DNA of 64,000 nt, taken from the NCBI RefSeq assembly GCF_000003195.3, contig NC_012871.2:13371022-13435021 (forward strand), written 5' to 3'. Origin of the DNA: Sorghum bicolor (lineage: Eukaryota; Streptophyta; Magnoliopsida; Poales; Poaceae). How positions within the stretch are numbered: position 1 is the stretch's first letter; each line of letters opens with the position of its first letter. Shown one piece after another: positions 483 through 57,955 of the stretch. The notes beneath the pieces were generated by a model that saw only the letters and a program-made list of their open reading frames with translations, was not told the origin of the DNA and did not search any database. The translations under genes were made by a program, and so were the position numbers.

Positions 483-739
483 TATAACACTCCAAATTTT
501 TGAATTTCAAATTTAGTTTAAATTTGATTTAATTTTGACTTAGTTTGAATCTTTGGGAATTATTAAATAATTTACAAAAATAAATAAAATGAAATACAAG
601 GTAGAAACGTGTTTGACTGCATTCATGCTGCTGCATTTGTTTTTGCTTGATTTATTTTATGCTTGGTTGCGCTTGGTTTTTGTTTTGAAACAAGAAAGAA
701 AATAGGAGAACCAATTTGTTTCTGAAATAAAAAAAAAAG

Positions 740-1500
740 AAAGGGCAACGCCCTGGGCCGGCCCCCGCGCCCCTCCCCTCTCCCCTCTTGCCCGAGTGGG
801 CCACGCGGCCCATCCCGCGCGCCAGCCCCGCAGCCGCAGAGCAGCAGCGCCCGCAGCCCTGCTCCCACCGCCACCCGCTGACGGGTGGGCCCCACCCGTC
901 AGAGCCGCCCTCAACCTCCCGTCCGAAGCGAACGGGGCAGCCGCGCCGCCTCTCGGTTTCCGAGCCGCACGGGAACCGAGGCTCGCCCGCGCCTTTAAAT
1001 AGCTTCTGCCCTCGCCCGCACGCGTCCCTAGAAGCCCTAGCCGCCAACTCGTCGTATTCCGCAGCGCCGCCGCCGAACTCGTCGAAATCCGCGCCGCCGC
1101 CGTCGAGCTTCTCTTTGCCGTCGACGTTTCGCGAAGGTGAGCCCTCCATTGCGTTCGCCTCGCCGAGCCGCACCCGCTGGTGCCCTTGCCTCGCCTCCCC
1201 GCGCCGCGAACCGCCGCCACGGCGAGCTCCGAGCGGCGCCAATGGCGCCACCTCCGCCCGCCGCACCGCCCGGACTGCGCTCGCCCCGCTCCGGCGCGCG
1301 GTCCACCGTGGACCGCGGCCTGCCGCCCCCGCACGCCGGTCCACCACGGACCCGGCCTATGCCGCCCCGGCCCCGGTCCACCATGGACCGGTGGACCGCC
1401 TCGCCCCCCCGGTCCACAGCCCGCGCCATGGACCGGCCAGCCGCGCGCCGCCACGTGGCCAGGCCGGCCACGGCCCCCGCGCCCCCTGCTGCTTTTGCAA
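740..1500 (+). promoter_or_regulatory. GC/CpG-rich promoter-like block in El1 LTR with TATA-like box at 994-1001
   Basis: A CpG-dense island inside an otherwise AT-rich LTR. TTTAAATA at 994-1001 is followed about 30 bases later by a sequence that looks like a plant 5' leader (CCCTAGAAGCCCTAGCCGCC). At 1136/1137 there is a good splice donor (AAG|GTGAGC). This is probably the U3/R boundary. Two perfect 17-bp dyads, CGGTCCANNNTGGACCG, lie at 1299-1315 and 1374-1390. The long open frames across this block on both strands have GC-driven composition and differ between the LTRs, so I do not call them genes. Confidence 0.55.
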
Positions 1501-1892
1501 AAAGGCCCTCGGGCTTATTTGAATTTAACCCGCGATCCAGCTCAGTTTAAAAATAAATAGAAATATGCCCCTGCCTTTACAGATTAGCCCCTACATCCGT
1601 TGGTTTTTATATATGTCATCCAAATCTCGTTTTAAATTCAGTTTTAATTACAAAAAATAGTTCAGTTTATCTACATAACTGCCATCCGACTTGTTTTAGC
1701 CATAACTTTTGCATCGTAGCTCCGATTTAGGTGATTCTGGTCGCTATAGTTTCGTCTCGTCGAGTAGAACATAGTAGTACAGTTGCTTTCTGCTTTCGCA
1801 TGCTTTGGTGTACTGTTTCTAATTAAGCTTGTTTGCTTGCATGTATTGCCTCGTTCGTGTGATGATTGTCGCGTATAGCCAACGAGACGTTC

Positions 1893-3176
1893 ATGAAGGA
1901 AGAGGTTCAGGATCCCGCTGAGTTCGAGCAACCCGACAACGATCAAGGCAAGTGCAGACACCGTTTGATCATTTTGAACCTATTCCTTAATATCATTAAC
2001 TTTATATGCATGTGTCCAATGAATGCAAACCCTAAGGACATGACTAGCTTTACTTACTATTCCTTGTTCACCTGGGGTTATGTATATGGGTAGACTAGGC
2101 TATACTAGGTTTGCTTAGCTGCTCTACTCATCTTATACACATGTTTAAACAAGAATTACTCTCTACTTAACTTGATGCTTAAACTGTGCTGAACTTTTGG
2201 TCACTGCGGTGATGGCGATGTTGGATGCTTACGCGCATCGTGATGATGGTGGTGACAGGGGGAGCGGGTACCGTTGGTGGTCCGGTTTGCCGAGCGTACC
2301 CATCTCTGCTCTCCGTAAGGACTTAGTCAGGGGGCGGCCCCCTGGGACTTACAGTGCAGCTCCAAGCTATATGGCTCTGGCTGGACTAATTAGCAGGACC
2401 TACACTAGTAGGGTGTTACTTTCCGGGTAGGCGTGAGGAAGTAACTTGGGTAATGAATATTAAGTTGTCAGTTGATCGGTACGCCATGGCTATGGGTATC
2501 GACTGCCGAGCGCCCTGGCAAAAACTCGCGAGTGGCATCCTATTAGTTGGACCCTGTGAAAGGTCTCGTAGTGAGACCCTGCCTGCTCACCTTGGTAGTG
2601 TTTTGGGGAGTCGCGACCCCGGGCAAATGGGAATCACGACTTGGAGTGAACGTGCACACCTCTGCAGAGTGTAAAACTGATATATCAGCCGTGCTCACGG
2701 TCACGAGCGGCCCAGACCCTCACTTGATGAGCAAATTAGATTCACTGGATACTTGGAGATGGAACTTGGAGAGGGTGCTACCTCGTGTTTTGGCGGAATG
2801 GCTATTCCGTGTTGGCAGGATTGCTATCCTGTGTTAATAATTGAGGTTAATCCCTGGACTACTACAATTATTAGAATAGTCTCTTAAAAGATGCTAATTA
2901 CTACGTACACTAATTAAGGGTTGGGTTTATGCTACTCATAATTAGTAATAGGTTGTTCTAATAATAGTCATAATTAAAAGTGATCAACTAAAATGCTACC
3001 ACAGTCAAACCAAGTCAGCTTTACCTTGTTTTAAGCCTTGCATGTCATTACTTTCCGTCTGTGCTTGCTGAGTTCGACATGAGCTCACCCTTGCTATAAT
3101 CTTTAAAGGTTGCTCGGACGATCAGGAGTACAATTGCGATTTCCCTGAGGACTACCCTGAGTCTCCTGGTTGTTAG
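1893..3176 (+). CDS. Predicted spliced acidic mini-protein encoded inside the El1 5' LTR (about 40 aa)
   Basis: Not a known gene. Predicted exons are a 5' leader ending at 1136, exon 2 at 1879-1947 (after an acceptor CGTATAG) with ATG at 1893, and exon 3 at 3109-3176 ending in TAG. The coding parts are 55 and 68 nt, so the frame closes exactly. The second intron uses a GC donor (CAAG|GCAAGT, 1948) and an AG acceptor (3107-3108), in phase 1, giving a Gly junction codon. The peptide is rich in Asp/Glu and Pro, has three Cys, and is strongly acidic. The larger El2 LTR has the same exon plan with the same phase and donor type. The function is unknown; it could instead be a regulated leader intron. 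I infer the splicing only from consensus and frame. Confidence 0.45.
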
Positions 3177-3458
3177 ACTCGTGTGGTTCTGCCATCGACC
3201 TTCCTGTGGCAAGGTGGTCCTGCTACGTCGGCGTCTAGTTTCCCCTTTTACTATGGAACAGTTTAGCTTATGTTTCCCCTTCGCACTTTGATAAACATTT
3301 GGCTTGTAATAATGGTATGTTTACTCTCATTTATGTAATTCGTTTGAACACTGTGTTTTGTACCATTGATGATGTCGGTCCATGTGTGTGAATTTGAGAT
3401 CCTGGCGCACATGTGATTTGGCACCCGAATGCTCTTTTACATCCGGGTGTGACAGAAG

Positions 3459-10100: not shown

Positions 10101-13080
10101 TATAACACTCCAAATTTTTGAATTTTAAATTTAGTTTAAATTTGATTTAATTTTGACTTAGTTTGATTCTTTGGGAATTATTAAATAATTTACAAAAATA
10201 AATAAAATGAAATACAAGGTAGAAACGTGTTTGACTACATTCATGCTGCTGCATTTGTTTTTGCTTGATTTATTTTATGCTTGGTTGCGCTTGGTTTTTG
10301 TTTTGAAACAAGAAAGAAAATAGGAGAAGCAATTTGTTTCTGAAATAAAAAAAAGAAAGGGCAACGCCCTGGGCCGGCCCCCGCGCCCCTCCTGTCTCCC
10401 CTCTTGCCCGAGTGGGCCACGTGGCCCATCTCGCGCGCCAGCCCAGCAGCCGCAGAGCAGCAGCGCCCGCAGCCTGCTCCCACCGCCACCCGCTGACGGG
10501 TGGGCCCCACCCGTCAGAGCCGCCCTCAACCTCCCGTCCGAAGCGGACGGGGCAGCCGCGCCGCCTCTCGGTTTCCGAGCCGCACGCGAATCGAGGCTCG
10601 CCCGCGCCTTTAAATAGCTTCTGCCCTCGCCCGCACGCTTCCCTAGAAGCCCTAGCCGCCAACTCGCCGTATTCCGCAGCGCCGCCGCCGAACTCGTCGA
10701 AATCCGCGCCACCGCCGTCGAGCTTCTCTTTGCCGTCGACATTTTGCGAAGGTGAGCCCTCCAATGCGTTCGCCTCGCCGAGCCGCACCCGCTGGTGCCC
10801 TTGCCTCGCCTCCCCGCGCCGCGAACCGCCGCCACGGCGAGCTCCGAGCGGCGCCAATGGCGCCACCGCCGCACGCCGCACCGCCCGGCCTGCGCTCGCC
10901 CCGCTCCGGCGCGCGGTCCACCGAGGACCGCGGCCTGCCGCCCCCGCACGCCGGTCCACCACGGACCCGGCCTATGCCGCCCCGGCCCCGGTCCACCATG
11001 GACCGGTGGACCGCCTCGCCCCCCCCCGGTCCACAGCCCGCGCCTTGGACCGGCCAGCCGCGCGCCGCCACGTGGCCAGGCCGGCCACGGCCCCGCGCCC
11101 CCTGCTGCTTTTGCAAAAAGGCCCTCGGGCTTATTGGAATTTAACCCGCGGTCCAGCTCAGTTTAGAAATAAATAGAAATATGCCCCTGCCTTTATAGTT
11201 TAGCCCCTGCATCCGTTGGTTTTTATATATGTAATCCAAATCACGTTTTAAATTCAGTTTTAATTAGTTTTAATTACAAAAAATAGTTCAGTTTATCTAC
11301 ATAACTGCCATCCAACTTGTTTTAGCCATAACCTTTGCATCGTAGCTCCGATTTAGGTGATTCTGGTCGCTATAGTTTCGTCTCGTCGAGTAGAACACAG
11401 TAGTACGGTTGCTTTCTGCTTTCGCATGATTTGGTGTACTGTTTCTGATTAAGCTTGTTTGCTTGCATGTATTGCCTCGTTCGTGTGATGATTGTCGCGT
11501 ATAGCCAACGAGACGTTCGTGAAGGAAGAGGTTCAGGATCCCGCTGAGTTCGAGCAACCCGACAACGATCAAGGCAAGTGCAGACACCGTTTGATCATTT
11601 TGAACCTATTCCTTAATGTCATTAACTTTATATGCATGTGTCCACTGAATGCAAACCCTAAGGACATGACTAGCTTTACTTACTATTCCTTGTTCACCTG
11701 GGGTTATGTATATGGGTAGACTAGGCTATACTAGGTTTGCTTAGCTGCTCTACTCATCTTATACACATGTTTAAATAAGAATTACTCTCTACTTAACTTG
11801 ATGCTTAAACTGTGCTGAACTTTTGGTCACTGCGGTGATGGCGATGTTGGATGCTTACGCGCATCGTGATGATGGTGGTGACAGGGGGAGCGGGTACCGT
11901 TGGTGGTCCTGTTTGCCGGGCGTACCCGTCTCTGCTCTCCGTAAGGACTTAGTTAGGGAGCGGCCCCCTGGGACTTACAGTGCAGCTCCAAGCTATATGG
12001 CTCTGGCTTGACTAATTAGCAGGACCTCCACTAGTAGGATGTTACTTTCCGGGTAGGCGTGAGGAAGTAACTTGGGTAATGAATATTAAGTTGTCGGTTG
12101 ATCGGTACGCCATGGCTATGGGTATCGACTACCGAGCGCCCCGGCAAAAACTCGCGAGTGGCATCCTATTAGTTGGACCCTGTGAAAGGTCTCGTAGTGA
12201 GACCCTGCCTGCTCACCTTGGTAGTGTTTTGGGGAGTCGCGGCCCCGGGCAAATGGGAATCACGACTTGGAGTGAACGTGCACACCTCTGCAGAGTGTAA
12301 AACTGATATATCAGCCGTACTCACGGTCACGAGCGGCCCAGACCCTCACTTGATGAGCAAATTGGATTCACTAGATACTTGGAGATGGAACTTGGCGAGG
12401 TTGCTACCTCGTGTTTTGGCGGAATGGCTATTCCGTGTTGGCAGGATTGCTATCCTGTGTTAATAATTGGGGTTAATCCCTGGACTACTACAATTATTAG
12501 AATAGTCTCTTAAAAGATGCTAATTAGTACTTACACTAATTAAGGGTTGGGTTTATGCTACTCATAATTAGTAATAGGTTGTTCTAATAATAGTCATAAT
12601 TAAAAGTGATCAACTAAAATGCTACCGCAGTCAAACCAAGTCAGCTTTACCTTGTTTTAAGCCTTGCATGTCATTACTTTCCGTCTGTGCTTGCTGAGTT
12701 CGACATGAGCTCACCCTTGCTATAATCTTTAAAGGTTGCTCGGACGATTAGGAGTACAATTGCGATTTCCCTGAGGACTACCCTGAGTCTCCTGGTTGTT
12801 AGGCTCGTGTGGTTCTGCCGTCGACCTTCCTGTGGCAAGGTGGTCCTGCTACGTCGGCGTCTAGTTTCCCCTTTTACTATGGAACAGTTTAGCTTATGTT
12901 TCCCCTTCGCACTTTGATAAACATTTGGCTTGTAATAATGGTACGTTTACTCTCATTTATGTAATTCGTTTGAACACTGTGTTTTATACCATTGATGATG
13001 TCGGTCCATGTGTGTGAATTTGAGATCCTGGCGCACATGTGATTTGGCACCCGAATGCTCTTTTACATCCGGGTGTGACA
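10101..13080 (+). repeat. El1 3' LTR
   Basis: Direct repeat of 483-3454 (2980 bp) with the same TA...CA ends and the flanking AATAT duplication at 13081. It keeps the GC-rich block, the TATA-like box and one of the two dyads intact; the first dyad has a changed base (CCACCGAGGACC). Confidence 0.95.
11505..12802 (+). pseudogene. Dead copy of the LTR mini-gene in the El1 3' LTR
   Basis: Exon 2 (11505-11573) and exon 3 (12735-12802) keep the splice signals, including the GC donor. The start codon reads GTG (11519-11521) instead of ATG, and codon GAT is followed by TAG at 12749-12751 where the 5' LTR has CAG. This copy would not make the peptide made by the 5' LTR copy. Confidence 0.45.
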
Positions 13081-33291: not shown

Positions 33292-36200
33292 TGTAACATC
33301 CCCGATGTTATGGTTACTAAAAAGGGATCATGTCATCATGAGCATTGCAAAGCATATTTGTTAAGCACATTAGTATGCATCAACTTAAAACAAGTTTACT
33401 TTGATTGCTTGAGCTTAGGGAGGTAGAGTGTGCTTATGTGGTGTGTTGATGCTTGTGTGGTTGCTAAAAACCCTAGGGTGGAAGATTTCCGAGAGCAAGG
33501 GGGGGAAACCCTGATTTTTGGATCCTAGATTTGCCCCCTTTTGCATAAGTCAAAAACCAAGCAAAATTTGAGGTTGAGTTCAAAAGCAAAGTTGTAGCTC
33601 TTGGCAAGATGTACAACTTTGGTGTTTTGAGTTTTTGAAGTTTCAATACAAAATTCAAAGTAATTTTGAAAATACAGATTTCCAGAAAGTGTCCCCTTTT
33701 CCAACTTAAACCCCCAAATCAAAATCCATTTGGAATTTTAAAAAGTGGTCAACATGAAAGTTGTAGAGCACAAAAAGTTGAGCAACTTTCATGTTGGGAG
33801 TTTTTCAAGTTGTTATGCAAAATCAAAAGTAATTTTGGAAATCCTGTTTTGTCCCCAATTCAAAAATTTGAATTTCTTTGAATTGAGTTCAATTTCAAAA
33901 CTGTTTGGCCAAATTAGCTATTTTCTACTCAGAATCAGCCCTGGCCACCAAAAGATGATTTGTAGCTTATAAAATTTGGAACAACTTTTGTTTTCACACA
34001 AATTTGACTCCAGTTCAAATTTCGGCTGAATTTCACAAAGTCCAGAAAAGAGGGGATAAGGGTCTCCTACAGTGACCCGATAGGGATCACCGGCTCCCTG
34101 TCCAGCACGGCCGCCGCGCGCGCAGCGCCGCGTGCGCGCGCGCAGGCACGCAGCCTGCCTGCCTGCTAGCGTCGCCAGGCGACGTGGATGCCTCGGACTT
34201 GCTTTCCCCTCCACTTGAGCGCAGCGTGGACGACGCCGTGCACTCCCTCCGTCCTGAGCCAAGGAACCCGACGAGCCCTTCTCTTCAAAATTCGCCATAA
34301 CCACTCCTTCCTGAGCCAAATTGAGTACTCTGCCGTATTCGCCACCTCCTTGCAGACCCAGAGCACCCCCGAGCTCACTCCCTAACCCCCTCAAACGCCA
34401 GAGCTTCTCCTTCTTCTCTAAGTCCGGCCGGCGTCACCGCCGTGGAACCCTTCACGTGAGCACGTTGCTCCAATCGGTACCACGCCTTACCAGCGATCGT
34501 TTCGAACTCCTCTCGTTTCCCCGATGCTCATGCGCTCGCTTCTTCTTCCTGGACGTGAGCAGGACCCCCGGAACGACTTCGCCGGAGCCGAAGCATCCGC
34601 CCGACCGCACGGCCACCGTCGCCAAGCCTCTCTACTGCTTCTCCCGCCGTGGTGATGTGAGCACCATGAGCCCCACTTCTTCCCGGACCTCCCGGACCTG
34701 CTGGTTCACGCTCTACCGAACCCTCGTGCCCGGTCCTCGGCGACCGACGCGGCCGTCCGCCATTTGTGTGGTTGAGGTGGAAAGAGAGCGGGAGAGCGTC
34801 CGGGAGTGGTAGCTTTGGAGTCGCAGGGTTGACGCGGTGCTGGTGCGCATGCGCGCGGGGGCCGAGGAACTCGCTAACGGTCGCCGGAGCGGCGGCAGCA
34901 CCGCCGTGAGCGAGGGAGGCGAAACTGACGAGCGGGACCCGCTCGTCAGTGACCATGCGGAGAGGGGAGCGCGCGCGCGGCGCCCGCGTGGGCCGAGCAA
35001 AGCGGGCCGGCCTGCGGGCCGATTTCCCAACCGCGTGCTGCAGTGACTTTTCCTTTTTCCTTTTTGTGCAGTTTTTGCTACATGTTTGAATTTGTGTAAT
35101 AATTCGTGTGTTAATCCAAAAATCATGGAAATTTTTGTGTAGATTCTCTGAAATAAGTAGGACCCAAGAAAAATATTAAGTTCTGTTTTCTAGTGGTTTA
35201 CAAGTATATAAAAATTGCCTCTTTTATCTAATGAATAAAACTTCTATGAATTTTAGTAATTTATTAGAGTGTCCAAAAATCACCAAAAATTGTGGAGAGC
35301 CTCTGAGTGGTATTCCCTGGCTCCACACAAAATTTGGTGGCATTTGGATAATATTTGATTAAAATATTAATAAATCCTTATTTAGTACTTATATAATAAT
35401 TCCAAAATAATTAGATAGTGATTAGTGAAATCCTCATAATTAAGGTTGAGTGATTTTGGGGATTGGGTGATGACCTGAGGTCATTAACCCTAATGACCTT
35501 TGGCATTTTATTATTGTTTAGCCTTAATGCTTAATTACTGTCATTAGCAGTTGATTAAGAATTAATTAAGGTAATAGGATTAATAATTAGTTAATTCAGG
35601 TTAATTATGAATTAAAAGAGATTTTACTTTACAGATGCAACCTCTTGGGTAAAAACATTAAGATGCTAAACAACTTTATTTAGTGATAATTCTGTATTGC
35701 ATTAGGAAAACAAATTGTACTTGATTCGGTCCTTTTTGCACATTTGTCATACGCATATCATGAGCATTCATCATTTTGCGTATAGTGTCCGTGACCGAAG
35801 GAGCGCCCGTGGAACCGAACCCCGAGGTCGGTGCTCCATTCGAAGAAGTAGGATCCGAGACTTGGGAAGTCTCCGAGGGTCCCTCTCTGCCCTGCAACCA
35901 AGGCAAGCCCCGGATGCATTAACCCCTCCTTGGATGTTTTAAATCTTTTATCACTTATGAATTGAAAATGCTGCATTAGATAGTTGAGAATTGGGTTAAC
36001 CTACTTGCTGCATTTACTGCCTTGATATTTGTTATCTTGTCCTTGGCACCTGTTTTACTTTAAAAACTGCGTAGTGATGCTTAGCCCTGCTACTAGATAG
36101 GTTTTCAAGCAAAGTTTGAAGGGTTGTTGTGGAATACACTTTTGATCAATGATGTTTCAATTTGAGACCGGTCGGTGGACTTGCTTTAAGAATGGAGTCT

Positions 36201-37511
36201 TAAAGTAGTGTCTCCAACTGTGTCGAGTAAGGACTGTTCCGTTGATGGCCTGCTGGGTTGAGAATTTATAGTACTAGCCACTTGCCCTCGGTAAGCCCGG
36301 TCTTGTGATCCCTCGACGCGAACAGCTACTCGCGCATTGGGAGTGGAAAGATGGCGAGAGTAACGTGTGCCCACCTTACGGATCTGAGATGACCGGAAAA
36401 CATCTAGATCGGCTGTAGGATGGTGGGGTACTGTGCTCTCGGGTGCCGCGAACCTGGTCAAATTTGGGAAGAGCCTGACTTGGGTTGATATATGCAAGAT
36501 TTGGTTCTACATATGTCGGGTGGTTAGGAACTCCAGCTGGATTGCTAAGCGATTCGAATCGTCGTTGCTCCCCGATTGGGAGACTCAATTCCTTCGACCC
36601 TCATCGTAGTTAAATATGCAACTGAATGATAAAATGAGAAAGGGGAAAATGTCTCATGAGGTTCGGATCCCAATTCTCGGACTCATAGCGACATGAAGCT
36701 ATGGCCATCGATAAATAATACTTGATGTTAGGATTAGGAACTCACGGATTCGTCTGTGGGGAACAACTAGTTAAACTGTCCTCGAACTCCTCGGCCTCTG
36801 CGGGAGAGGAATTCGCGGTTAAAACTTGAAAACAAGGATGCACTACTAGTAAGCTTTTAGCAAAACATTTTGGCTCCTTGCTCAGCCACCCCTTGTCTAC
36901 CCTAAGCCTGCATCCCTAAGTTCTCCTCTTTTCCCATCGGGTAAGTCTTGTTGAGTACTCCCGTACTCAGGGTTTCAATACCCCTGTTGCAGGTGAAGCA
37001 CAGGAGCCGACTTGCTTCGGACCCTGTTGTGTGACCGTCGTCGAGGTTGACGACGAAGAAGAGTGAGCGTGACCCATGGGCAGGGTCTGTAAATTTGTAC
37101 TGTCTGTACTAAAGTTTCAGTTGCTCCGCTGGACCAGGCTTGTAATAACACTCTACTATTTGGAAGAACTCCTTTTGTAAATTAAGTTATGTAATACTTC
37201 CGCTGTTTTACTCTGAAATATTATTTTAGTCTTGTGTCGTTTGAGTTACTGCTTTATCTTCGCAACGAATGATCCTGGTGTTAAGGTGGCTACTTGCTAT
37301 CCTGTAAGGGCGAGAAGAAGCAGTTCTCGTTGTTTGACCATTACCAGTGGTCAGAACGAGCCAGCTTGGTACGCCACAGGTAGCAGTGGAATGAGCGTCC
37401 AGCGATGCTCATCGGACTTCTAAGGTGGGAGGACTCCCGGCATCACCGTCAGAGGTCCTTAGGACAATGGCAGGTGCCGGTGGGCCCAAACACTTAGGGG
37501 ATTCTGCCACA
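33292..37511 (+). repeat. El2 5' LTR (4220 bp)
   Basis: Very long LTR with the same sequence order as the El1 LTR: AT-rich start, GC-rich block (about 34080-35045), AT-rich tract, small coding exon, long spacer, second coding exon, end. Matches 43539-46786 plus 56979-57955. Confidence 0.95.
34525..37066 (+). CDS. Predicted spliced acidic mini-protein encoded inside the El2 5' LTR (about 73 aa)
   Basis: Predicted exons are 34525-34555 (ATG in the GC-rich block, donor GGAC|GTGAGC), 35786-35902 (acceptor GCGTATAG, donor CAAG|GCAAGC of GC type) and 36993-37066 (acceptor TTGCAG, stop TGA). Lengths 31, 117 and 74 nt close the frame, both introns phase 1. Exon 1 is the weakest call: two other GTGAGCA donors lie at 34453 and 34656. 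The middle and last exons give an acidic, Pro- and Cys-containing peptide ending in Asp-Asp-Glu-Glu-Glu. Exon plan, last-intron phase, GC donor and Gly junction codon match the El1 LTR gene although the sequences are otherwise diverged. No known domain. Splicing is predicted, not shown. Confidence 0.45.
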
Positions 37512-37884: not shown

Positions 37885-38589
37885 ATGGCTCGTCAGAAGC
37901 AGACCCCGCGTAAGCGGACCGGTCCAAAAGGAGTTCCCCGACATCAGCTAGCTCCACGCAGTGATCAAGCCAGTAGTAGTCGTTCACCGCCTCAGCAGGA
38001 GGTGGACAGGTTGTCTGCCGAGTTGACTGAGGTGATGAGAGAGAGAATGTACAATGTTATGGAGATTGGCAAACTTAAAGCTCAACTAGCCAAAGAAAAA
38101 CAAGCTACGGAGAACTGTGAGGCTATGTTGTCCCGGATGGTGGAGGAGCGGAATGCAGCCATTGCCCGAGAGGAAGAAGCTAGGAGCACACACAAGCATG
38201 AGCTAACTAGGATGAATGCAAAGCTGGGCAAGGCCAGGTATCTTAAGGATTTGTACGTGAAGATGGCGGCCACGGTCACCGCACAGCGGGATGTCGCGTG
38301 GCAACGAGAGGACCAGCTCCAGCTGGAGAAACTGGAGCTGGCACACCACTTAGATACTGTCAATGACCTGGCTATGCAATATCGTGATATTGCATTTGAT
38401 CTGTATCATCAGCTCCACCCACCTCCCGGCGAAGGGGAAATGGATACGGATGGCGAGTTGGCAGACGATGGGGAACCCGATCCCGGCCTCAGTGATGAAG
38501 AGGAGTCCGACCCCGATGACCACAACCCAGGGGGTAATCAGGATGATGGCAATGACGACCCGGGCTACAGCTCTGGCCACACCGATTAG
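37885..38589 (+). CDS. El2 accessory ORF upstream of gag (234 aa, coiled coil with acidic tail)
   Basis: Intact ORF between the primer site and gag. The N-terminus is basic (RQKQTPRKRTGPKG) and could bind nucleic acid or act as a nuclear signal. Residues about 35-150 have heptad-like Leu, Glu and Lys and should form a long coiled coil. Residues about 180-234 are almost wholly Asp, Glu, Gly, Asn and Pro. The basic-coil-acidic plan suggests a self-associating nucleic-acid or histone-binding protein, but no family is recognised. El1 has a broken ORF in the same place. The 213-base gap to gag ATG 38803 and the separate frame mean it would be translated from its own or a reinitiated message. Confidence 0.7.
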   Translation: MARQKQTPRKRTGPKGVPRHQLAPRSDQASSSRSPPQQEVDRLSAELTEVMRERMYNVMEIGKLKAQLAKEKQATENCEAMLSRMVEERNAAIAREEEARSTHKHELTRMNAKLGKARYLKDLYVKMAATVTAQRDVAWQREDQLQLEKLELAHHLDTVNDLAMQYRDIAFDLYHQLHPPPGEGEMDTDGELADDGEPDPGLSDEEESDPDDHNPGGNQDDGNDDPGYSSGHTD

Positions 38590-43538: not shown

Positions 43539-46500
43539 TGTAACATCCCCGATGTTATGGTTACTAAAAACGGATCATGTCATCATGAGCATTGCAAAGC
43601 ATATTTGTTAAGCACATTAGTATGCATCAACTTAAAACAAGTTTACTTTGATTGCTTGAGCTTAGGGAGGTAGAGTGTGCTTATGTGGTGTGTTGATGCT
43701 TGTGTGGTTGCTAAAAACCCTAGGGTGGAAGATTTCCGAGAGCAAGGGGGGGGGAAACCCTGATTTTTGGATCCTAGATTTGCCCCCTTTTGCATAAGTC
43801 AAAAACCAAGCAAAATTTGAGGTTGAGTTCAAAAGCAAAGTTGTAGCTCTTGGCAAGATGTACAACTTTGGTGTTTTGAGTTTTTGAAGTTTCAACACAA
43901 AATTCAAAGTAATTTTGAAAATACAGATTTCCAGAAAGTGTCCCCTTTTCCAACTTAAACCCCCAAATCAAAATCCATTTGGAATTTTAAAAGGTGGTCA
44001 ACATGAAAGTTGTAGAGCACAAAAAGTTGAGCAACTTTCGTGTTGGGAGTTTTTCAAGTTGTTATGCAAAATCAAAAGTAATTTTGGAAATCCTGTTTTG
44101 TCCCCAATTCAAAAATTTGAATTTCTTTGAATTGAGTTCAATTTCAAAACTGTTTGGCCAAATTAGCTATTTTCTACTCAGAATCAGCCCTGGCCACCAA
44201 AAGATGATTTGTAGCTTATAAAATTTGGAACAACTTTTGTTTTCACACAAATTTGACTCCAGTTCAAATTTCGGCTGAATTTCACAAAGTCCAGAAAAGA
44301 GGGGATAAGGGTCTCCTACAGTGACCCGATAGGGATCACCGGCTCCCTGTCCAGCACGGCCGCCGCGCGCGCAGCGCCGCGTGCGCGCGCGCAGGCACGC
44401 AGCCTGCCTGCCTGCCTGCTAGCGTCGCCAGGCGACGTGGATGCCTCGGACTTGCTTTCCCCTCCACTTGAGCGCAGCGTGGACGACGCCGTGCACTCCC
44501 TCCGTCCTGAGCCAAGGAACCCGACGAGCCCTTCTCTTCCAAATTCGCCATAACCACTCCTTCCTGAGCCAAATTGAGTACTCTGCCGTATTCGCCACCT
44601 CCTTGCGGACCCAGAGCACCCCCGAGCTCACTCCCTAACCCCCTCAAACGCCAGAGCTTCTCCTTCTTCTCTAAGTCCGGCCGGCGTCACCGCCGTGGAA
44701 CCCTTCACGTGAGCACGTTGCTCCAATCGGTACCACGCCTTACCAGCGATCGTTTCGAACTCCTCTCGTTTCCCCGATGCTCATGCGCTCGCTTCTTCTT
44801 CCTGGACGTGAGCAGGACCCCCGGAACGACTTCGCCGGAGCCGAAGCATCCGCCCGACCGCACGGCCACCGTCGCCAAGCCTCTCTACTGCTTCTCCCGC
44901 CGTGGTGATGTGAGCACCATGAGCCCCACTTCTTCCCGGACCTCCCGGACCTGCTGGTTCACGCTCTACCGAACCCTCGTGCCCGGTCCTCGGCGACCGA
45001 CGCGGCCGTCCGCCATTTGTGTGGTTGAGGTGGAAAGAGAGCGGGAGAGCGTCCGGGAGTGGTAGCTTTGGAGTCGCAGGGTTGACGCGGTGCTGGTGCG
45101 CATGCGCGCGGGGGCCGAGGAACTCGCTAACGGTCGCCGGAGCGGCGGCAGCACCGCCGTGAGCGAGGGAGGCGAAACTGACGAGCGGGACCCGCTCGTC
45201 AGTGACCATGCGGAGAGGGGAGCGCGCGCGCGGCGCCCGCGTGGGCCGAGCAAAGCAGGCCGGCCTGCGGGCCGATTTCCCAACCGCGTGCTGCAGTGAC
45301 TTTTCCTTTTTCCTTTTTGTGCAGTTTTTGCTACATGTTTGAATTTGTGTAATAATTCGTGTGTTAATCCAAAAATCATGGAAATTTTTGTGTAGATTCT
45401 CTGAAATAAGTAGGACCCAAGAAAAATATTAAGTTCTGTTTTCTAGTGGTTTACAAGTATATAAAAATTGCCTCTTTTATCTAATGAATAAAACTTCTAT
45501 GAATTTTAGTAATTTATTAGAGTGTCCAAAAATCACCAAAAATTGTGGAGAGCCTCTGAGTGGTATTCCCTGGCTCCACACAAAATTTGGTGGCATTTGG
45601 ATAATATTTGATTAAAATATTAATAAATCCTTATTTAGTACTTATATAATAATTCCAAAATAATTAGATAGTGATTAGTGAAATCCTCATAATTAGGGTT
45701 GAATGATTTTGGGGATTGTGTGATGACCTGAGGTCATTAACCCTAATGACGTTTGGCATTTTATTATTGTTTAGCCTTAATGCTTAATTACTGTCATTAG
45801 CAGTTGATTAAGAATTAATTAAGGTAATAGGATTAATAATTAGTTAATTCAGGTTAATTATGAATTAAAAGAGATTTTACTTTACAGATGCAACCTCTTG
45901 GGTAAAAACATTAAGATGCTAAACAACTTTATTTAGTGATAATTCTGTATTGCATTAGGAAAACAAATTGTACTTGATTCGGTCCTTTTTGCACATTTGT
46001 CATACGCATATCATGAGCATTCATCATTTTGCGTATAGTGTCCGTGACCGAAGGAGCGCCCGTGGAACCGAACCCCGAGGTCGGTGCTCCATTCGAAGAA
46101 GTAGGATCCGAGACTTGGGAAGTCTCCGAGGGTCCCTCTCTGCCCTGCAACCAAGGCAAGCCCCGGATGCATTAACCCCTCCTTGGATGTTTTAAATCTT
46201 TTATCACTTATGAATTGAAAATGCTGCATTAGATAGTTGAGAATTGGGTTAACCTACTTGCTGCATTTACTGCCTTGATATTTGTTATCTTGTCCTTGGC
46301 ACCTGTTTTACTTTAAAAACTGCGTAGTGATGCTTAGCCCTGCTACTAGATAGGTTTTCAAGCAAAGTTTGAAGGGTTGTTGTGGAATACACTTTTGATC
46401 AATGATGTTTCAATTTGAGACCGGTCGGTGGACTTGCTTTAAGAATGGAGTCTTAAAGTAGTGTCTCCAACTGTGTCGAGTAAGGACCGTTCCGTTGATG

Positions 46501-46786
46501 GCCTGCTGGGTTGAGAATTTATAGTACTAGCCACTTGCCCTCGGTAAGCCCGGTCTTGTGATCCCTCGACGCGAACAGCTACTCGCGCACTGGGAGTGGA
46601 AAGATGGCGAGAGTAACGTGTGCCCACCTTACGGATCTGAGATGACCGAAAAACATCTAGATCGGCTGTAGGATGGTGGGGTACTGTGCTCTCGGGTGCC
46701 GCGAACCTGGTCAAATTTGGGAAGAGCCTGACTTGGGTTGATATATGCAAGATTTGGTTCTACATATGTCGGGTGGTTAGGAACTC
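43539..46786 (+). repeat. El2 3' LTR, left part (interrupted by El4)
   Basis: Matches 33292 onward. It ends at AACTC (46782-46786), the target duplication of El4. It includes the GC-rich block and exons 1 and 2 of the LTR mini-gene copy (44777-44807 and 46039-46155), identical in coding sequence to the 5' LTR copy. Confidence 0.95.
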
Positions 46787-47246
46787 TGTCGACGAAAGCT
46801 GGTCGGCAGTCTATCTTGGGGTATACCCTCGGTAGTAGTTTATCGGTAGACGGTGCGCAAACTACGAACTCGATGGTGACGCAAGACACGGACAAGCTTT
46901 TTATCCAGGTTCGGCCGCCGAGTTGGCGTAATACCTACGTCCTGCGTCTGGTTGTATTGATTTGTGCTGAGAGAATATGATGTCCTAGGGGGGTCCCTTG
47001 CCCCTCCTTATATAGTCTGGAGGGCAGGGTTACAGATCTAGAAACTAATCCTAGTCAGTTACAATTGCCATGGATAATTCGATGTCAATTCCTATTCTAA
47101 CCGACTAGAATCCTGCTTGATCTCCACATCTTGTTTCCTTGCGCGAAACTCCAGGTTGTCGGATCAAGCCTTGAACTCGTCTCGTAATGGACCAAGCCTC
47201 CTGGCCGAAGTCTAGCCGTAAGGGTATAGGGGTTTATACCCCCACA
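46787..47246 (-). repeat. El4 3' LTR (left copy)
   Basis: 460 bp, TGTCGACG...CCCCCACA on the plus strand, matching 56514-56973. Confidence 0.95.
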
Positions 47247-48290
47247 GCTAGTCCCCGAGCACCATGTATTGTGATGTAACACGCCGTCTTGAGCTTCTTC
47301 GATCAGTGTGGCTTGACGTCTTCAATAAGCAGGAAAGTCGCCCGAACAGTTGCAACGGTATTTTGACCAACTCAAAAGACAGTTGATCAACATTGACATC
47401 GAAGAAGCAGGTTGTTCGAAGAATGCATGGTGCTCTTAAAAAAAATTTCTTTCTTGGTGAAGTGTGCCCACTTTACCTTTTTGAAAGGTATAAACATCAA
47501 AAAAGCAAGCAAATTCACCGCTAGGTGAAGTGTGCCCACTTAGTCCCCGAGCCTGGTAGTAGGTGACGTAGGCACGTGGAGCCAGGGTCAAAAGAAAATT
47601 CCCCAAAGTAGTTTTGAGACTGAGATGCATCGCTAGATGCATCGTACCGATGTAGTCCCCGAGCTTGCTGGAAGGCGAAGTATGAGCCTTGTAGCAAGGT
47701 CTAAAGTGAATTTACCAGTCCCCGAGCATGTCATGCTCGTCTGCAATTGAAGAGACCAATCGACCAGTCCCCAAGCACTAAGTGTGCTCCTTGGAATTAT
47801 ATGTTGCTATACCGTACGACCAGTCCCCGAGCGTCGAGTGCTCGGTGGTCGGTGCATGCTTTAAAGCTTTGAGCTGATAGACTGGGCGACCAGTCCCCGA
47901 GCGTCGAGTGCTCGGTGGTCGATGCAGTCCTTGAAGTTCCGAGCTGATAGACTGGGCGACCAGTCCCCGAGCGTCGAGTGCTCGGTGGTCGGTGCAGTCC
48001 CCGGATTGTTGACTCACTGGCGTATGTGTCTTCTTATTTTTGAAAAGATCTTTCCAGTTAAAGTTGACGTGACGACGCCTCCTGACGGGGTGTCAGACGG
48101 ATGCATGAAAAGTTGCGCCTGACAACTGTACAGCCGCCCTTTGCATGGTTTGAGAAAAGGAAACCATCAATTGGTACGAAAACTCCGCCGCATTAATTGT
48201 CTATAATCATTGTAAACCGAAACGCCGCGTCCGCCGCATGGCCTGCCCACTTCCCGAGAATACAGGAAGTGGGAGAGGTGGAGTTGCGGG
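47247..48290 (+). repeat. Repeat-rich 5' region of the El4 antisense gene
   Basis: The word AGTCCCCGAGC and close variants occur about nine times between 47250 and 48000. At 47815-48003 it is part of about 2.7 tandem copies of a 70-bp unit (GACCAGTCCCCGAGCGTCGA, GTGCTCGGTGGTCGGTGCA). Further on is an inverted repeat, CCCACTTCC...GGAAGTGGG, at about 48246-48273. The region has no gene and lies directly upstream of the TATA box of the antisense gene, so it may be its regulatory region. Confidence 0.7.
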
Positions 48291-48291
48291 C

Positions 48292-48299
48292 TATAAGAG
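48292..48299 (+). promoter_or_regulatory. TATA-like box of the El4 antisense gene
   Basis: TATAAGAG at 48292, 118 bases before the ATG at 48410, followed by a C/T-rich leader. Spacing fits a plant promoter. Confidence 0.5.
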
Positions 48300-48409
48300 C
48301 CTAATAGTTCCGCCTGTACCGCTTACCCTGCCATTGCCTTCAAACCTTCCACTCTCATCTCCTCCAATCTCCTGCATCTTCCTAACTTAAGCCCACATTC
48401 GCACCTCTA

Positions 48410-51400
48410 ATGGCGAAGAGCGACTCCAGGAAGAGGGCCGAACTAATGGCCAAGGAGTGGAAGAAGTCTCGCAGCACCACAAAATCTCTTGGTGACCTCG
48501 TCGATATGGGGCTTCTGCACGGCCCGGAGCTCGGCGGCTGGAGGGCACCGGAGGGGGAGAGCTACCCCGACCCTCGCGCCGGTGAGATCGTCGTATTTGA
48601 AGATTTCATTAAGAGGGGTTTTGGTGTTCCTGTTCATCCTTTTCTTCAAGGTCTTCTTTTGTATTATGAGATCAGGATTTGCAATCTGCACCCGAACTCA
48701 ATTCTCCTCATTTCCACCTTTATCCACCTGTGCGAGGCCTATGTTGGCATAGAGCCGCACTTCGATCTTTTTCGGTATCTTTTTTGCTTGAGGAAGAAAG
48801 GAGCAGTTGGAGGCTCCAAGGTTGCAGGTGGAGTATACCTCAACCTTCGTGATGGAATGAAGAATCGCTACCTGCACTGCCCATGGAACACTTCCTTGAC
48901 CGAATGGTACAGGAAGTGGTTCTACATCAGGGAGGAACCGGGCAGCTCCACGTTCTGCGACGTGGGATACATTCCTGAGAGGAGGACGAGCTGGACCGAA
49001 CGCCCGGAGTTCGACGGTCCAGTGGCGGATCTCATGAAGCTGATCGACTGGTCGCGCCTGGACGGGCTTGGCGTGGTCGGCAACTTCATTTGCCGCCGGG
49101 TGATGCCCTGCCAGAAGAGGGTGCACTCGGCGTACGAGTATGCCGGAAGCGCGGACCCGACCAGGATGCGGCCGGAGATCTTGGAGAAAGCGGAGGTACA
49201 ACAGCTGTTGAACGAGCTGTTTAACTTCGCGGATGGGGGCTTCATCCGTGGCAGTGATCGGGTGCAAGCCTTCAAGTTAGGACGACCAGCACCAAAGGTA
49301 TGTAGCAGATTCTGTTTTAGCATTCGTATATCGACTGCAGTTGACTCATCTCTGTTGCTTTTGCAGATCGGCGATGTCGACCGGTGCACAGTGTATGTAT
49401 CACTGGCACCGGGGATGGAAAATCCTGCGGGAGAGGTCCCACCAGAGGAGGACGCTGCTCGGTGTACTCATTACACCAGCAGTGAGGAAGACCAAGCCCG
49501 CCCCGTCCCGACCTCCGAGGAGAGGGTAGCGGGGAAAAGGCCATTGCCGCAGATCCCTTGCCGACACCGGAGCTGCCGGCAGATCTACCGGCGGAGAGCA
49601 GCCAAGCACCGAAGCGTCGTCGGCTCGTGCGGATCGTCGTCGACGACGACGACGAGGAGGCTGCGCCGTCGTTGGTCCGACGGCCTCGGAGCCACCCAGA
49701 CAATGCGCCGGTCGCCACTGATCGAGTGGCCAGCGGCGCCGCTGCCCCGCAAGCTGTCGAGATGGGGGCACAGGTGCCGACCGGCCGGGCGAGGAGGAGG
49801 TTCACCGCGACCCACCGTCGGTCAGACCTGTAAGTGTTCGACTTACGTATTTTGGACTCCTCTTTGACTTTTTTTTTTGAAATTTAACTTTTGTTCCTGT
49901 AGTGCGGCATCGGATGTCGACCCCGGCCAAACTGCCAGCCAGGGAACGGGCGAGCCTGCCCGCGGTTCTGGGGATGCGGCCCCCCAGACCACAGAGCAGC
50001 CAACAGCTGCAGTCGCGCCTGGGAGCACCGAGGGGCTCCCGAGCGCGGCACCGACTACGACAAGCAGCCCGACCAGGGCTGGAGAGGCTCCCCCAACTGA
50101 CTCCTCAGAGAAGGGAAGATCTCCGACCGCTCCTCCTGCCGGGGGGAGTGAAGTCCCCACGCCGCCCCGAGCAGGAGCCTCTTCGGCTGCGGGCTCCCCA
50201 GGTCTGGTCCAAGGGCCAGTAATACCTGGGACCACCACCGGGGGTGACGCAGCACAGGAGGAGGAAACCCGGGCGGCCTCCGATGATGAGGTGGAAGAGA
50301 TTGAGGGTCGTCCCCGTGATGGCCGCCAACACGTGTATGTGTGGCGCCAACGCGGGGATCACTTTATCGGGCATGAGGAGCTCGCCGAGACCGAAGAGGC
50401 CGCCAGGGTGGAGCGCGCGGCCAAGCGCCTCGTCGACGAAGTCAAGGTAAGCGGCTTTTTGTACTGCTGTACATTCTATGCCTTGTCTTGCATGGTCGTT
50501 ATATGCTTGCTTTGTAGGGCGCAATGAAAACGGCGAAGTACCAGAAACGGTGCTTTGACCAGATAGAAGGCGTCATGGCCGAGAACAAGGCCCTTGCCGC
50601 GGGGGTAGACCGGTTGCGGTCGGAGGTCGGGGAGAAGGTGGCCGAGATGAGTGCCGAGCAGCTTTGCGTACTAGTATAGTTTGCTTTGCTGACCAGTTTA
50701 TGATTCACGCAGACTTGGAGGAGGAGGTGGCGCGCCTCCGACAAGAGAAGGAGCAGCTCAGCCAACAGCTCGCCGGTGCGCTGGAGTCCGGGCGGCGAGC
50801 AGGAGAGGAATTGGGTCGAAAAGACCGGGAGCTATCTGGTAATGGGTGTCGCCTTGTTGGTTGCTGCCTGCCCCTTTGTTTGTTTGGTATGCCGAAAATA
50901 ACGCTTCGTTTCGTTTGCAGTGCTCAAGGTGAACGCCAAAAAGCACCTGGATGATCTGATCAAGGACCGGGACTCCTGGAAGGTCAACTGTTGCAGGATC
51001 TGGAAAGGAGTGTCCCCGGTCCTAGACCTGATCAGTCCCGAGCTCCCGGAGAGCCAGCCCCGCGCGCCGCAGTTGACCCCGGTCGAGAAGGCGCAACGGG
51101 CGTGGGACTGGCTCCAGCAGTTTGTGAAGGACGCCGGGGAGTTTGCCGGCGCGCACGTCCTCAGCATGGTGCGCGCCCACTACCCCCTGGTCGTCTTGAG
51201 CAGGCTGGAGAAGGGGTACCCGAAGGAAGTCGGCCCACAGGAAGCGGACGAGCTTCGGGGTAGTCTGCTGGACTTGTCGTCGACAGTGATCGGCGACATC
51301 AATCTGTGCGGAACGGCCACTCCTCCAGACCAGCCGAGTTCAGATAGGTCGGCCAGGGAGTTGTCGGGCGCGTCCGTTGCGGGAGATGGGCGGTCGACGC

Positions 51401-51495
51401 CTGCGGTCTCGACCAGCCAGGCGCCGGTGGCCCCGACCCCTTCGTCCGGGCAGCAGGGCCAGGCGGGTGATCAGCCCGAGCAGCTAGGCCAGTAG
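48410..51495 (+). CDS. El4 antisense gene: gypsy-type transposon domain protein, six predicted exons, one frameshift
   Basis: Predicted exons are 48410-49297, 49367-49829, 49903-50446, 50518 to about 50665, 50713-50838 and 50921-51495. Exon 1 (296 codons) matches the family named putative gypsy type transposon (transposase_28, PF04195): VVFEDFIKRGFGVPVHPF and NLHPNSILLISTFIHLCEA. Exon 2 has a nuclear-type KRRR and acidic DDDDEE stretch; its length and frame indicate a 1-base deletion near 49548. Exon 3 is Pro/Ala/Thr-rich with an acidic end. Exons 4 to 6 are coiled coil (EEEVARLRQEKEQLSQQL). The exon 4 donor is weak. A polyadenylation word AATAAA follows at 51562. It runs opposite to El4 pol and ends 273 bases from the pol stop. 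Function unknown. Confidence 0.6.
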
Positions 51496-51767
51496 TCTGT
51501 AGGAATAGACTAGTGTCTGCCCGTCAGGGTATTTATTGTAAACTTTGTATGTAAAGTTTGTAATAAAGTTTGCTTTTTGTCATGACTGTTGTTTTGAGCG
51601 CTGTAAGAATATCTGAGTGACGTGTCACCGTATTTGTCTTGGTTGTCGCTAAGAGCATCCATTGCAGGAGTTTTGCCGAGTGCTGTGTGTGACAAGGTAT
51701 AGGCAAAAAATAGAGAATTTCATTATCAAAAATTATAAGATACTTACAAAAGAAAGTCCTTAAAACT

Positions 51768-54700: not shown

Positions 54701-54940
54701 GAACCGGATTGGCGAGCCAATCGGGGTGATACACTTCTTTTATGAATCCGGCTGCTAGAAGCCGTGTTATTTCTGTCCTAATGTCACGAGCGAACCGTCA
54801 CAGTTTTTGCTTGATTGGTCTTGCGGTCTTCGAGACATTTAAGGAGTGCTCGATCAGGTTTCGTGGGACACCGGGCATGTCTGCGGGTTTCCATGCGAAA
54901 ACGCCCACGTTGTCCCTTAGAAACCTGACGAGCGCGTCTT
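51768..54940 (-). pseudogene. pol: El4 Pol: RT, RNase H, archaeal-type RNase H, integrase
   Basis: One open frame of 988 codons (54734-51768) covers RT ([22 protein letters not shown]), a degenerate first RNase H (LYIAATD in place of the usual DAS), the archaeal-type RNase H ([15 protein letters not shown]), integrase with the zinc finger and DDE core ([26 protein letters not shown]) and the C-terminal WEGPFVV segment. The frame continues upstream through LAAGFIKEV to a TGA at 54798-54800 and, before that, the TAG at 54942-54944. The enzyme core looks intact, but it cannot be reached by normal translation from gag. Confidence 0.88.
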
Positions 54941-54941
54941 C

Positions 54942-56465: not shown

Positions 56466-56494
56466 CTTGTTCGCCGGAAAAGTTGCACGCACAC

Positions 56495-56512
56495 CCCCTA
56501 CCTGGCGCGCCA
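56495..56512 (-). other. El4 primer binding site
   Basis: TGGCGCGCCAGGTAGGGG on the minus strand, one base inside the 5' LTR; tRNA not assigned. Confidence 0.75.
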
Positions 56513-56513
56513 C

Positions 56514-56973
56514 TGTCGACGAAAGCTGGTCGGCAGTCTACCTTGGGGTATACCCTCGGTAGTAGTTTATCGGTAGACGGTGCGCAAACTACGAACTCGA
56601 TGGTGACGCAAGACACGGACAAGCTTTTTATCCAGGTTCGGCCGCCGAGTTGGCGTAATACCTACGTCCTGCGTCTGGTTGTATTGATTTGTGCTGAGAG
56701 AATATGATGTCCTAGGGGGGTCCCTTGCCCCTCCTTATATAGTCTGGAGGGCAGGGTTACAGATCTGGAAACTAATCCTAGTCAGTTACAATTGCCATGG
56801 ATAATTCGATGTCAATTCCTATTCTAACCGACTAGAATCCTGCTTGATCTCCACATCTTGTTTCCTTGCGCGAAACTCTAGGTTGTCGGATCAAGCCTTG
56901 AACTCGTCTCGTAATGGACCAAGCCTCCTGGCCGAAGTCTAGCCGTAAGGGTATAGGGGTTTATACCCCCACA
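56514..56973 (-). repeat. El4 5' LTR (right copy)
   Basis: 460 bp. On the minus strand it has a TATATAAGG box near 56735-56741. About three base differences from the left copy. Confidence 0.95.
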
Positions 56974-56978
56974 AACTC

Positions 56979-57955
56979 CAGTTGGATTGCTAAGCGATTC
57001 GAATCGTCGTTGCTCCCCGATTGGGAGACTCAATTCCTTCGACCCTCATCATAGTTAAATATGCAACTGAATGATAAAATGAGAAAGGGGAAAATGTCTC
57101 ATGAGGTTCGGATCCCAATTCCCGGACTCATAGCGACATGAAGCTATGGCCATCGATAAATAATACTTGATGTTAGGATTAGGAACTCACGGATTCGTCT
57201 GTGGGGAACAACTAGTTAAACTGTCCTCGAACTCCTCGGCCTCTGCGGGAGAGGAATTCGCGGTTAAAACTTGAAAACAAGGATGCACTACTAGTAAGCT
57301 TTTAGCAAAACATTTTGGCTCCTTGCTCAGCCACCCCTTGTCTACCCTAAGCCTGCATCCCTAAGTTCTCCTCTTTTCCCATCGGGTAAGTCTTGTTGAG
57401 TACTCCCGTACTCAGGGTTTCAATACCCCTGTTGCAGGTGAAGCACAGGAGCCGACTTGCTTCGGACCCTGTTGTGTGACCGTCGTCGAGGTTGACGACG
57501 AAGAAGAGTGAGCGTGACCCATGGGCAGGGTCTGTAAATTTGTACTGTCTGTACTAAAGTTTCAGTTGCTCCGCTGGACCAGGCTTGTAATAACACTCTA
57601 CTATTTGGAAGAACTCCTTTTGTAAATTAAGTTATGTAATACTTCCGCTGTTTTACTCTGAAATATTATTTTAGTCTTGTGTCGTTTGAGTTACTGCTTT
57701 ATCTTCGCAACGAATGATCCTGGTGTTAAGGTGGCTACTTGCTATCCTGTAAGGGCGAGAAGAAGCAGTTCTCGTTGTTTGACCATTACCAGTGGTCAGA
57801 ACGAGCCAGCTTGGTACGCCACAGGTAGCAGTGGAATGAGCGTCCAGCGATGCTCATCGGACTTCTAAGGTGGGAGGACTCCCGGCATCACCGTCAGAGG
57901 TCCTTAGGACAATGGCAGGTGCCGGTGGGCCCAAACACTTAGGGGTTCTGCCACA
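56979..57955 (+). repeat. El2 3' LTR, right part
   Basis: Continues 36537-37511 of the 5' LTR after the El4 insertion. It contains the last exon of the LTR mini-gene copy (57438-57511). In this LTR El4 sits inside the mini-gene intron, so exons 2 and 3 are now 11.3 kb apart. Confidence 0.95.

What the first reader, a model, noticed from the sequence alone, without database searches (positions are those of the whole stretch)
34525..37066. Same LTR mini-gene in a second, diverged chromovirus with conserved phase-1 GC-AG intron
Seen: El2 has the same order (GC-rich promoter block, GCGTATAG acceptor, acidic exon, CAAG|GCAAG donor, acidic last exon). The last intron is in the same phase and the junction codon is Gly in both. 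The rest of the LTRs is hardly alignable by eye. Inference: exon plan kept by selection over long time, so the peptide or the splice event matters to the element.
Basis: partly seen in the sequence, partly recalled or inferred. Interest (0 to 1): 0.88.

Follow-up and report, generated by a model that had tools for sequence, protein, structure and literature searches.

The report
Spliced acidic frame inside retrotransposon LTRs
Two distantly related grass retrotransposons carry the same small split reading frame inside their long terminal repeats; it looks spliced and kept as protein, but how its translation would start is unclear and no RNA was examined here.

Summary
Mostly confirmed. El2 and El1 are diverged Ty3/gypsy elements (RNaseH-integrase 60% identical) whose LTRs give no significant DNA match, yet share GCGTATAG|exon 2|CAAG|GCAAG, a 1.1-kb phase-1 GC-AG intron, a Gly junction codon, an acidic last exon and GGCTTGTAATAA behind its stop. 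A shared exon of this kind appears in 0 and 2 of 12,000 shuffled LTR pairs. New: in the host genome the GC donor is intact in 40 of 40 El2-family and 29 of 30 El1-family copies read, and exon-3 variants shared by copies fall at codon position 3 in 11 of 12 cases, so the frame seems selected. Rye Revolver, a transcribed three-exon 'transposon-like gene', has the same plan and is probably the same thing. Best reading: an LTR-internal transcript with an inefficient GC donor, encoding a small acidic protein. No RNA was examined; splicing and translation are inferred.

The parts
33292..37511 (+). El2 5' LTR (TGTAACATCC...CTGCCACA; flanks CTTGT / CTTGC)
34090..35040 (+). El2 GC-rich block (67% GC), presumed promoter and first-exon region; differs radically between subfamilies
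   Evidence: promoter role inferred
34524..34553 (+).
   Evidence: ATG in 20 of 40 copies
35778..35785 (+). El2 acceptor GCGTATAG
   Evidence: 40 of 40 copies
35786..35902 (+). El2 exon 2 (117 nt, phase 1 to phase 1)
35903..36992 (+). El2 GC-AG intron
   Evidence: donor 40 of 40; acceptor AG in 37 of 40; splicing inferred
36993..37066 (+). El2 exon 3, coding part with stop TGA 37064-37066
37137..37148 (+). GGCTTGTAATAA, presumed polyadenylation signal
   Evidence: exact in 24 of 40 copies, GGCTCGTAATAA in 11; role inferred
46039..46155 (+). El2 3' LTR, exon 2 copy (same peptide)
57438..57511 (+). El2 3' LTR, exon 3 copy, cut off from exon 2 by a nested element
483..3454 (+). El1 5' LTR (flanks AATAT on both sides of the element)
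1022..1136 (+). El1 presumed exon 1, free of ATG, ending GCGAAG|GTGAG; 5' end guessed from TTTAAATA at 994
   Evidence: transcription inferred
1879..1947 (+). El1 exon 2 (69 nt) behind GCGTATAG 1871-1878 and before CAAG|GCAAG
   Evidence: donor 29 of 30, acceptor GCGTATAG 24 of 30
3109..3176 (+). El1 exon 3, coding part with stop TAG 3174-3176
3301..3312 (+). El1 GGCTTGTAATAA, presumed polyadenylation signal
   Evidence: 26 of 30 copies; role inferred
11505..11573 (+). El1 3' LTR, exon 2 copy (GTG for ATG)
12735..12802 (+). El1 3' LTR, exon 3 copy with a premature stop

Best explanation
The R region of these Tekay/Del-type LTRs is itself a small split gene. RNA starts at the LTR promoter (inferred). 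A first exon is joined to exon 2 at GCGTATAG; in El1 its donor is GCGAAG|GTGAG, in El2 it is not placed. A GC-AG intron of about 1.1 kb is removed and the RNA ends at a polyadenylation signal behind exon 3, all within one LTR. Exons 2+3 encode a small, strongly acidic, probably unstructured protein part that was under selection while the families spread. Translation probably starts at a near-cognate codon or at an AUG supplied by a variable first exon. The GC donor probably splices inefficiently: spliced RNA ends in the LTR and is translated, unspliced RNA can run on as genomic RNA with an intact R region. Shown here: conserved splice signals, open frame, codon-position pattern, absence of spliced copies in the genome. 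Inferred: transcription, splicing, translation, the switch and any role of the peptide.
For: Shared exon plan beyond chance. Donor intact in 40 of 40 and 29 of 30 copies. Frame without premature stop in 36 of 36 kept El2-family copies, one of them with a 1-nt deletion, and in 28 of 29 kept El1-family copies. Shared exon-3 variants at codon position 3: 7 of 7 (El2) and 4 of 5 (El1); 0 of 596 control windows have all shared sites in one phase. Sorghum gene model P0001 has this exon 2/exon 3 junction. No spliced copy of either junction in the genome, as expected if spliced RNA is not copied back. Revolver, with the same plan, is transcribed and spliced in rye, with clones that keep and clones that lack intron 2 (passages).
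Against: No RNA evidence in sorghum. No in-frame ATG in the El1 first exon in 27 of 27 copies with a found donor; exon-2 ATG in 1 of 30. El1 exon 2: 0 of 3 shared variants at position 3. El2 singletons are also fairly synonymous (11 of 20, P 0.019), 3 of the 7 El2 exon-3 sites lie in CpG, and El2 exon 3 is as variable as intron 2. El1 exon 3 is conserved, but 31 of 320 windows elsewhere are equally so. Absence of spliced copies also fits no splicing at all.
Confidence: 0.5

Rival explanations
1. Leader model: the exons form an AUG-free spliced 5' leader of gag mRNA. Splicing removes AUG-rich introns so that ribosomes can scan to the downstream frame; the acidic frame is incidental or a regulatory upstream frame.
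For: Over 29 El1-family copies exons 1, 2 and 3 hold 0, 1 and 1 ATG where base composition predicts 20, 26 and 30; introns hold more than predicted. El2 exon 2 holds 1 against 47. BARE of barley makes a spliced subgenomic RNA for Gag (PMC3735527, abstract).
Against: Does not explain shared variants at codon position 3 or the acidic composition. El2 exon 3 has ATG in 14 of 36 copies. A presumed polyadenylation signal lies just behind exon 3.
Confidence: 0.25
2. Conserved DNA, not a gene: the motifs and the GC-rich last block are cis elements kept for promoter, packaging or att functions, and the open frame is chance.
For: No RNA seen here; no spliced copies in the genome; conserved 3' CpG islands are reported in Del LTRs of one cluster (PMC4029996, passages).
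Against: The shared words sit at splice-like signals in one common frame, the rest of the LTRs does not align, and codon positions vary unequally. The published rye gene with this plan is spliced.
Confidence: 0.15
3. Tail model: exons 2-3 are mainly used in the 3' LTR as a phase-1 acidic C-terminal tail spliced onto upstream element or host exons that supply the AUG.
For: Exon 2 is symmetric (phase 1 to phase 1), the exons lack AUG, and first exons of Revolver cDNAs are highly variable. Gene model P0011 joins a different first exon to exon 2.
Against: No upstream donor was sought or shown; P0011 is a prediction that reads through the GC donor.
Confidence: 0.1

Closest known systems
Revolver (Tomita and colleagues; rye and other Triticeae)
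   Same: About 3 kb; three exons (342, 88, 292-296 bp) and two introns (750, 1237 bp), against about 742 and 1161 bp introns and a 69-bp exon 2 in El1; variable first exon, conserved exons 2 and 3; clones with and without intron 2. The printed 3' cDNA primer shares 11 nt (CTCTTTTACAT) with the last 23 bp of the El1 LTR.
   Different: Described as a class II-like gene distinct from LTRs, with 20-bp terminal inverted repeats and, in subfamily I, a 139-aa ORF. Exon 2 of 88 bp is not a multiple of three. Its splice sites and protein were not available; over its whole length the primer matches better elsewhere in the El1 LTR (15 of 23), and the other printed oligos show nothing notable.
Tekay/Del LTR survey groups (PMC4029996) and Retrosat2/Sorsat2 (PMC3485330)
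   Same: Long LTRs (about 4 kb in several sorghum groups) with a plastic 5' CpG island and two U5 end types; ORF0 before gag in grass elements; R region of 2 kb in Retrosat2 (passages and one section).
   Different: No intron, exon or splicing inside the LTR is described: 'intron', 'splic', 'exon' have no occurrence in PMC4029996; in PMC3485330 'splic' occurs once, in a reference title.
BARE of barley (PMC3735527, abstract)
   Same: Separate RNA pools for translation and replication, one made by splicing.
   Different: Ty1/copia; the spliced RNA encodes Gag, not an LTR peptide.
Superantigen gene of mouse mammary tumour virus (recalled)
   Same: An accessory gene within an LTR.
   Different: Unrelated virus, protein and layout; recalled, not tested.

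Membership tests
Tekay/Del chromovirus (El1, El2) | Ty3/gypsy order gag - protease - RT/RNaseH - integrase | tested here: met
   Pfam hits (RT itself found only in El1; the El2 RT stretch was not among the ORFs scanned)
Tekay/Del chromovirus (El1, El2) | chromodomain behind integrase; place in an RT tree | not tested
Revolver | three-exon plan with exon 2 near 90 bp and introns near 750 and 1240 bp | tested here: inconclusive
   El1 about 742 / 69 / 1161 fits; El2 exon 2 is 117 nt, intron 2 is 1090 nt, intron 1 not placed
Revolver | sequence homology to AB124665/AB124666 | not testable with these tools
   Sequence not held; only an 11-nt match of one printed primer
Spliced protein-coding gene | coding-type constraint in the frame | tested here: met
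   11 of 12 shared exon-3 variants at codon position 3 (P 4.7e-5), 14 of 20 over both exons (P 9e-4), sites taken as independent
Spliced protein-coding gene | in-frame AUG upstream of the conserved frame | tested here: not met
   El1: none in exon 1 of 27 of 27 copies with a found donor, exon-2 ATG in 1 of 30. El2: only in an unsupported exon 1, 20 of 40
Spliced protein-coding gene | RNA evidence of the junction | not testable with these tools
   No RNA data; gene model P0001 only

The most novel reading that the evidence does not exclude
Grass Tekay/Del LTRs carry a widespread accessory gene inside R: a non-AUG-started acidic protein made from an LTR-confined mRNA, whose conserved weak GC donor divides transcripts between this mRNA and full genomic RNA. 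Revolver of rye would be the same gene, read until now as a separate transposon.
Probability: 0.33. Interest if true: 0.85.

Novelty: new variant of a known kind. Interest (0 to 1): 0.62.

Why it matters
It would place a conserved accessory gene in the LTRs of abundant grass retrotransposons, offer a splicing-based answer to how one RNA serves both translation and replication, help explain why these LTRs are so long, and reinterpret Revolver. Every solo LTR would then also be a small gene.

Tried and rejected
Rejected: exon 1 at 34525. Rejected: the El1 ATG at 1893 as start (GTG in 29 of 30 copies). Rejected: plain chance for the shared plan. Led nowhere: viral-contig scans (one stretch, L001, not examined further; no relative encoded); genome contigs (four chromovirus-like contigs in bacterial assemblies, L002-L005; no acceptor 8-mer or donor 9-mer on their given strand; they hold little or no LTR); El1 peptide search (only P0010, listed without a source, as the window's own proteins are); search allowing longer proteins (P0011 and P0008); search for spliced copies (none with up to 3 mismatches); 40 kb of arbitrary genome sequence (only weak integrase matches, no such LTR); AlphaFold of P0001 alone (pLDDT 67, pTM 0.23, no fold); ten paper searches.

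Not obtained: diverged El2 subfamilies (P0007 against the genome) and a sample of El2 copies not chosen by exon 2 (intron-2 query); these requests did not complete.
Full report
WHAT IS THERE. The window holds several nested LTR retrotransposons. El1 has LTRs at 483-3454 and 10101-13080 (97.2% alike); El2 has a 5' LTR at 33292-37511 and a 3' LTR split by a younger insertion into 43539-46786 and 56974-57955 (99.4 and 99.6% alike). Pfam finds Ty3/gypsy gag, protease, RNase H and integrase in both. Their RNaseH-integrase parts are 60% identical. The window lies in an unnamed 709-Mb genome. The closest El2 peptide relative is a Sorghum bicolor protein, 97% identical over 81% of the query, so the host is probably sorghum.

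THE OBSERVATION. GCGTATAG occurs four times on the + strand of the window, each time at the proposed acceptor; CAAGGCAAG five times, four at the proposed donors. The joined exons are open in one frame only, the same in both elements, with net charge -16 (El2, 62 aa) and -14 (El1, 44 aa); 30 of 19,874 and 31 of 28,400 open windows of these lengths are as acidic. The LTRs themselves give no significant match. Asking for a shared acceptor 8-mer, a shared donor 9-mer 40-200 nt later, lengths equal modulo 3 and a common open frame, the real pair gives exactly the reported exon; 0 of 12,000 dinucleotide and 2 of 12,000 block shuffles give any. The criteria were shaped after seeing the motifs, so the true odds are less extreme. 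The 12-mer GGCTTGTAATAA begins 71 nt (El2) and 125 nt (El1) after the last base of the stop and looks like a plant polyadenylation signal (recalled).

COPIES OF EL2. With exon 2 of El2 as query, the 40 best of 1349 candidates were scored and all 40 read (30, 10). By their coordinates two of them are the window's own LTRs (L009, L008). Because exon 2 was the query, its low variation means little. The acceptor 8-mer and donor 9-mer are unchanged in 40 of 40, although partly outside the query, while the 685 bp that end at the acceptor differ by 10% between copies. Four copies were dropped as truncated or interrupted (L008, L015, L020, L025). In the other 36 no premature stop is seen; one (L043) has a 1-nt deletion in exon 2. 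Twelve sites vary in two or more copies; ten are at codon position 3, and 9 of 12 changes are synonymous (expected fraction 0.30; P 0.0019). In exon 3, which was not the query, 7 of 7 are at position 3; of 596 control windows of that length with at least 7 shared sites, none has all in one phase. Against this: singletons, which should mostly be post-insertion noise, are also fairly synonymous (11 of 20, P 0.019), 3 of the 7 exon-3 sites lie in CpG, and exon 3 is about as variable as intron 2 (0.036 and 0.038).

COPIES OF EL1. With El1 DNA 1860-2060 as query, the 40 best of 747 candidates were scored and 30 came as loci and were read; L050 and L051 are, by their coordinates, the window's own LTRs. 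Donor CAAGGCAAG in 29 of 30; acceptor GCGTATAG in 24 of 30 (GCGTTTAG 4); exon-3 acceptor AG in 28 of 30; stop in 30 of 30; GGCTTGTAATAA in 26 of 30. One copy (L073) was dropped. The frame has no premature stop in 28 of 29; the exception matches the window's own 3' LTR. Leaving out the window's two LTRs and L073 (27 copies), exon 3 differs from the window copy by 1.4% on average, intron 2 by 5.1%, the stretch behind the stop by 8.0%; but 31 of 320 windows elsewhere are as conserved as exon 3. Shared variants: exon 3, 4 of 5 at position 3; exon 2, 0 of 3; singletons, 4 of 16. Together, exon 3 of both families has 11 of 12 at position 3 (P 4.7e-5), exons 2+3 have 14 of 20 (P 9e-4). These tests take sites as independent.

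EXON 1 AND THE START. In El1 a good first donor, GCGAAG|GTGAG or a close variant, was found in 27 of 30 copies although the GC-rich block before it is mostly 15-38% diverged; none of the 27 has an ATG in the 115 nt before it. Over 29 copies El1 exons 1, 2 and 3 hold 0, 1 and 1 ATG in any frame where base composition predicts 20, 26 and 30, while the introns hold more than predicted. El2 exon 2 holds 1 against 47; El2 exon 3 holds 17 against 44, in 14 of 36 copies. Copies are related, so these are not independent counts. Either translation starts at a non-AUG codon, or the AUG comes from elsewhere, or the exons are a cleaned leader.

SPLICING EVIDENCE. None from RNA here. The sorghum gene model P0001 (64 aa) joins exon 2 to exon 3 at this junction; P0011 joins another first exon to exon 2 but reads through the GC donor; both are predictions. 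P0002-P0008 look like unspliced reading of exon 2, P0009 of exon 3. No copy of either spliced junction was found in the genome at up to 3 mismatches. If splicing occurs, spliced RNA does not feed back into new copies, as a two-pool model requires; no splicing at all would look the same.

MECHANISM. Inferred: exon 1 to polyadenylation signal corresponds to the R region of the LTR, so the spliced RNA is the LTR's own transcript. A GC donor is likely to splice incompletely; papers on regulated GC-AG introns were seen only as titles in a reference list. Genomic RNA must keep R unspliced to rebuild the LTR, so an inefficient intron would leave both RNAs. BARE of barley is a precedent for separate RNA pools (PMC3735527, abstract).

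REVOLVER. Passages of PMC2851119, and the Methods and part 1 of 2 of the Results of PMC3203089, describe Revolver of rye: 2929-3041 bp, TATA at 221, exons 342/88/292-296 bp, introns 750 and 1237 bp, AATAAA at 2918. Of 50 cDNA clones, 40 fall in three subfamilies that differ in exon 1; five others kept the second intron and four matching ones lacked it. Wheat ESTs are conserved from exon 2 on, with at least 12 types of exon 1. [quoted passage not shown] A FISH paper found homology of Revolver to multiple TE lineages (PMC5632726, passages). The El1 LTR (2972 bp; introns about 742 and 1161; exon 2 69 bp) has the same plan, and the printed 3' cDNA primer shares 11 nt with the last 23 bp of the El1 LTR; over its whole length that primer matches better elsewhere, and other printed oligos match nothing notable. 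I think Revolver is a Triticeae version of this LTR gene (about 70%), but no Revolver sequence was at hand.

PRINT STATUS. The Del LTR survey (PMC4029996, passages) reports plastic 5' and conserved 3' CpG islands and two U5 end types; 'intron', 'splic' and 'exon' do not occur in it. Search listings for LTR-internal splicing or ORFs in this lineage showed nothing that by title or abstract describes it, apart from Revolver; the library lacks most subscription papers.

VERDICT. A real, conserved, most likely spliced feature with a coding signature that is clear in exon 3 and weak in exon 2 of El1. The peptide claim is partly supported, the start is open, and exon 1 as given is wrong or not general.

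Noticed in passing
window 37885-38589: A 234-aa ORF without Pfam match before the El2 gag ORF, in the place of the ORF0 described for Retrosat2-type grass elements.
   Followed up: no
window 483-493 and 10101-10111: Both El1 LTRs begin TATAACACTCC instead of TG..., with a perfect AATAT target duplication, so the odd end was probably already in the source copy.
   Followed up: no
L006-L045, L050-L079: Within each family the 5' GC-rich block and first-exon region differ radically between copies while exon 2 onward stays alike, as if 5' LTR halves were exchanged.
   Followed up: partly
L002-L005: Chromovirus-like pol sequences on short contigs of bacterial assemblies, probably eukaryotic contamination.
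   Followed up: no
window 46786-56973: A younger gypsy-type element (461-bp LTRs, polyprotein on the minus strand) nested in the El2 3' LTR.
   Followed up: no
window 16695-18048: Cytochrome P450 gene pieces in two ORFs.
   Followed up: no
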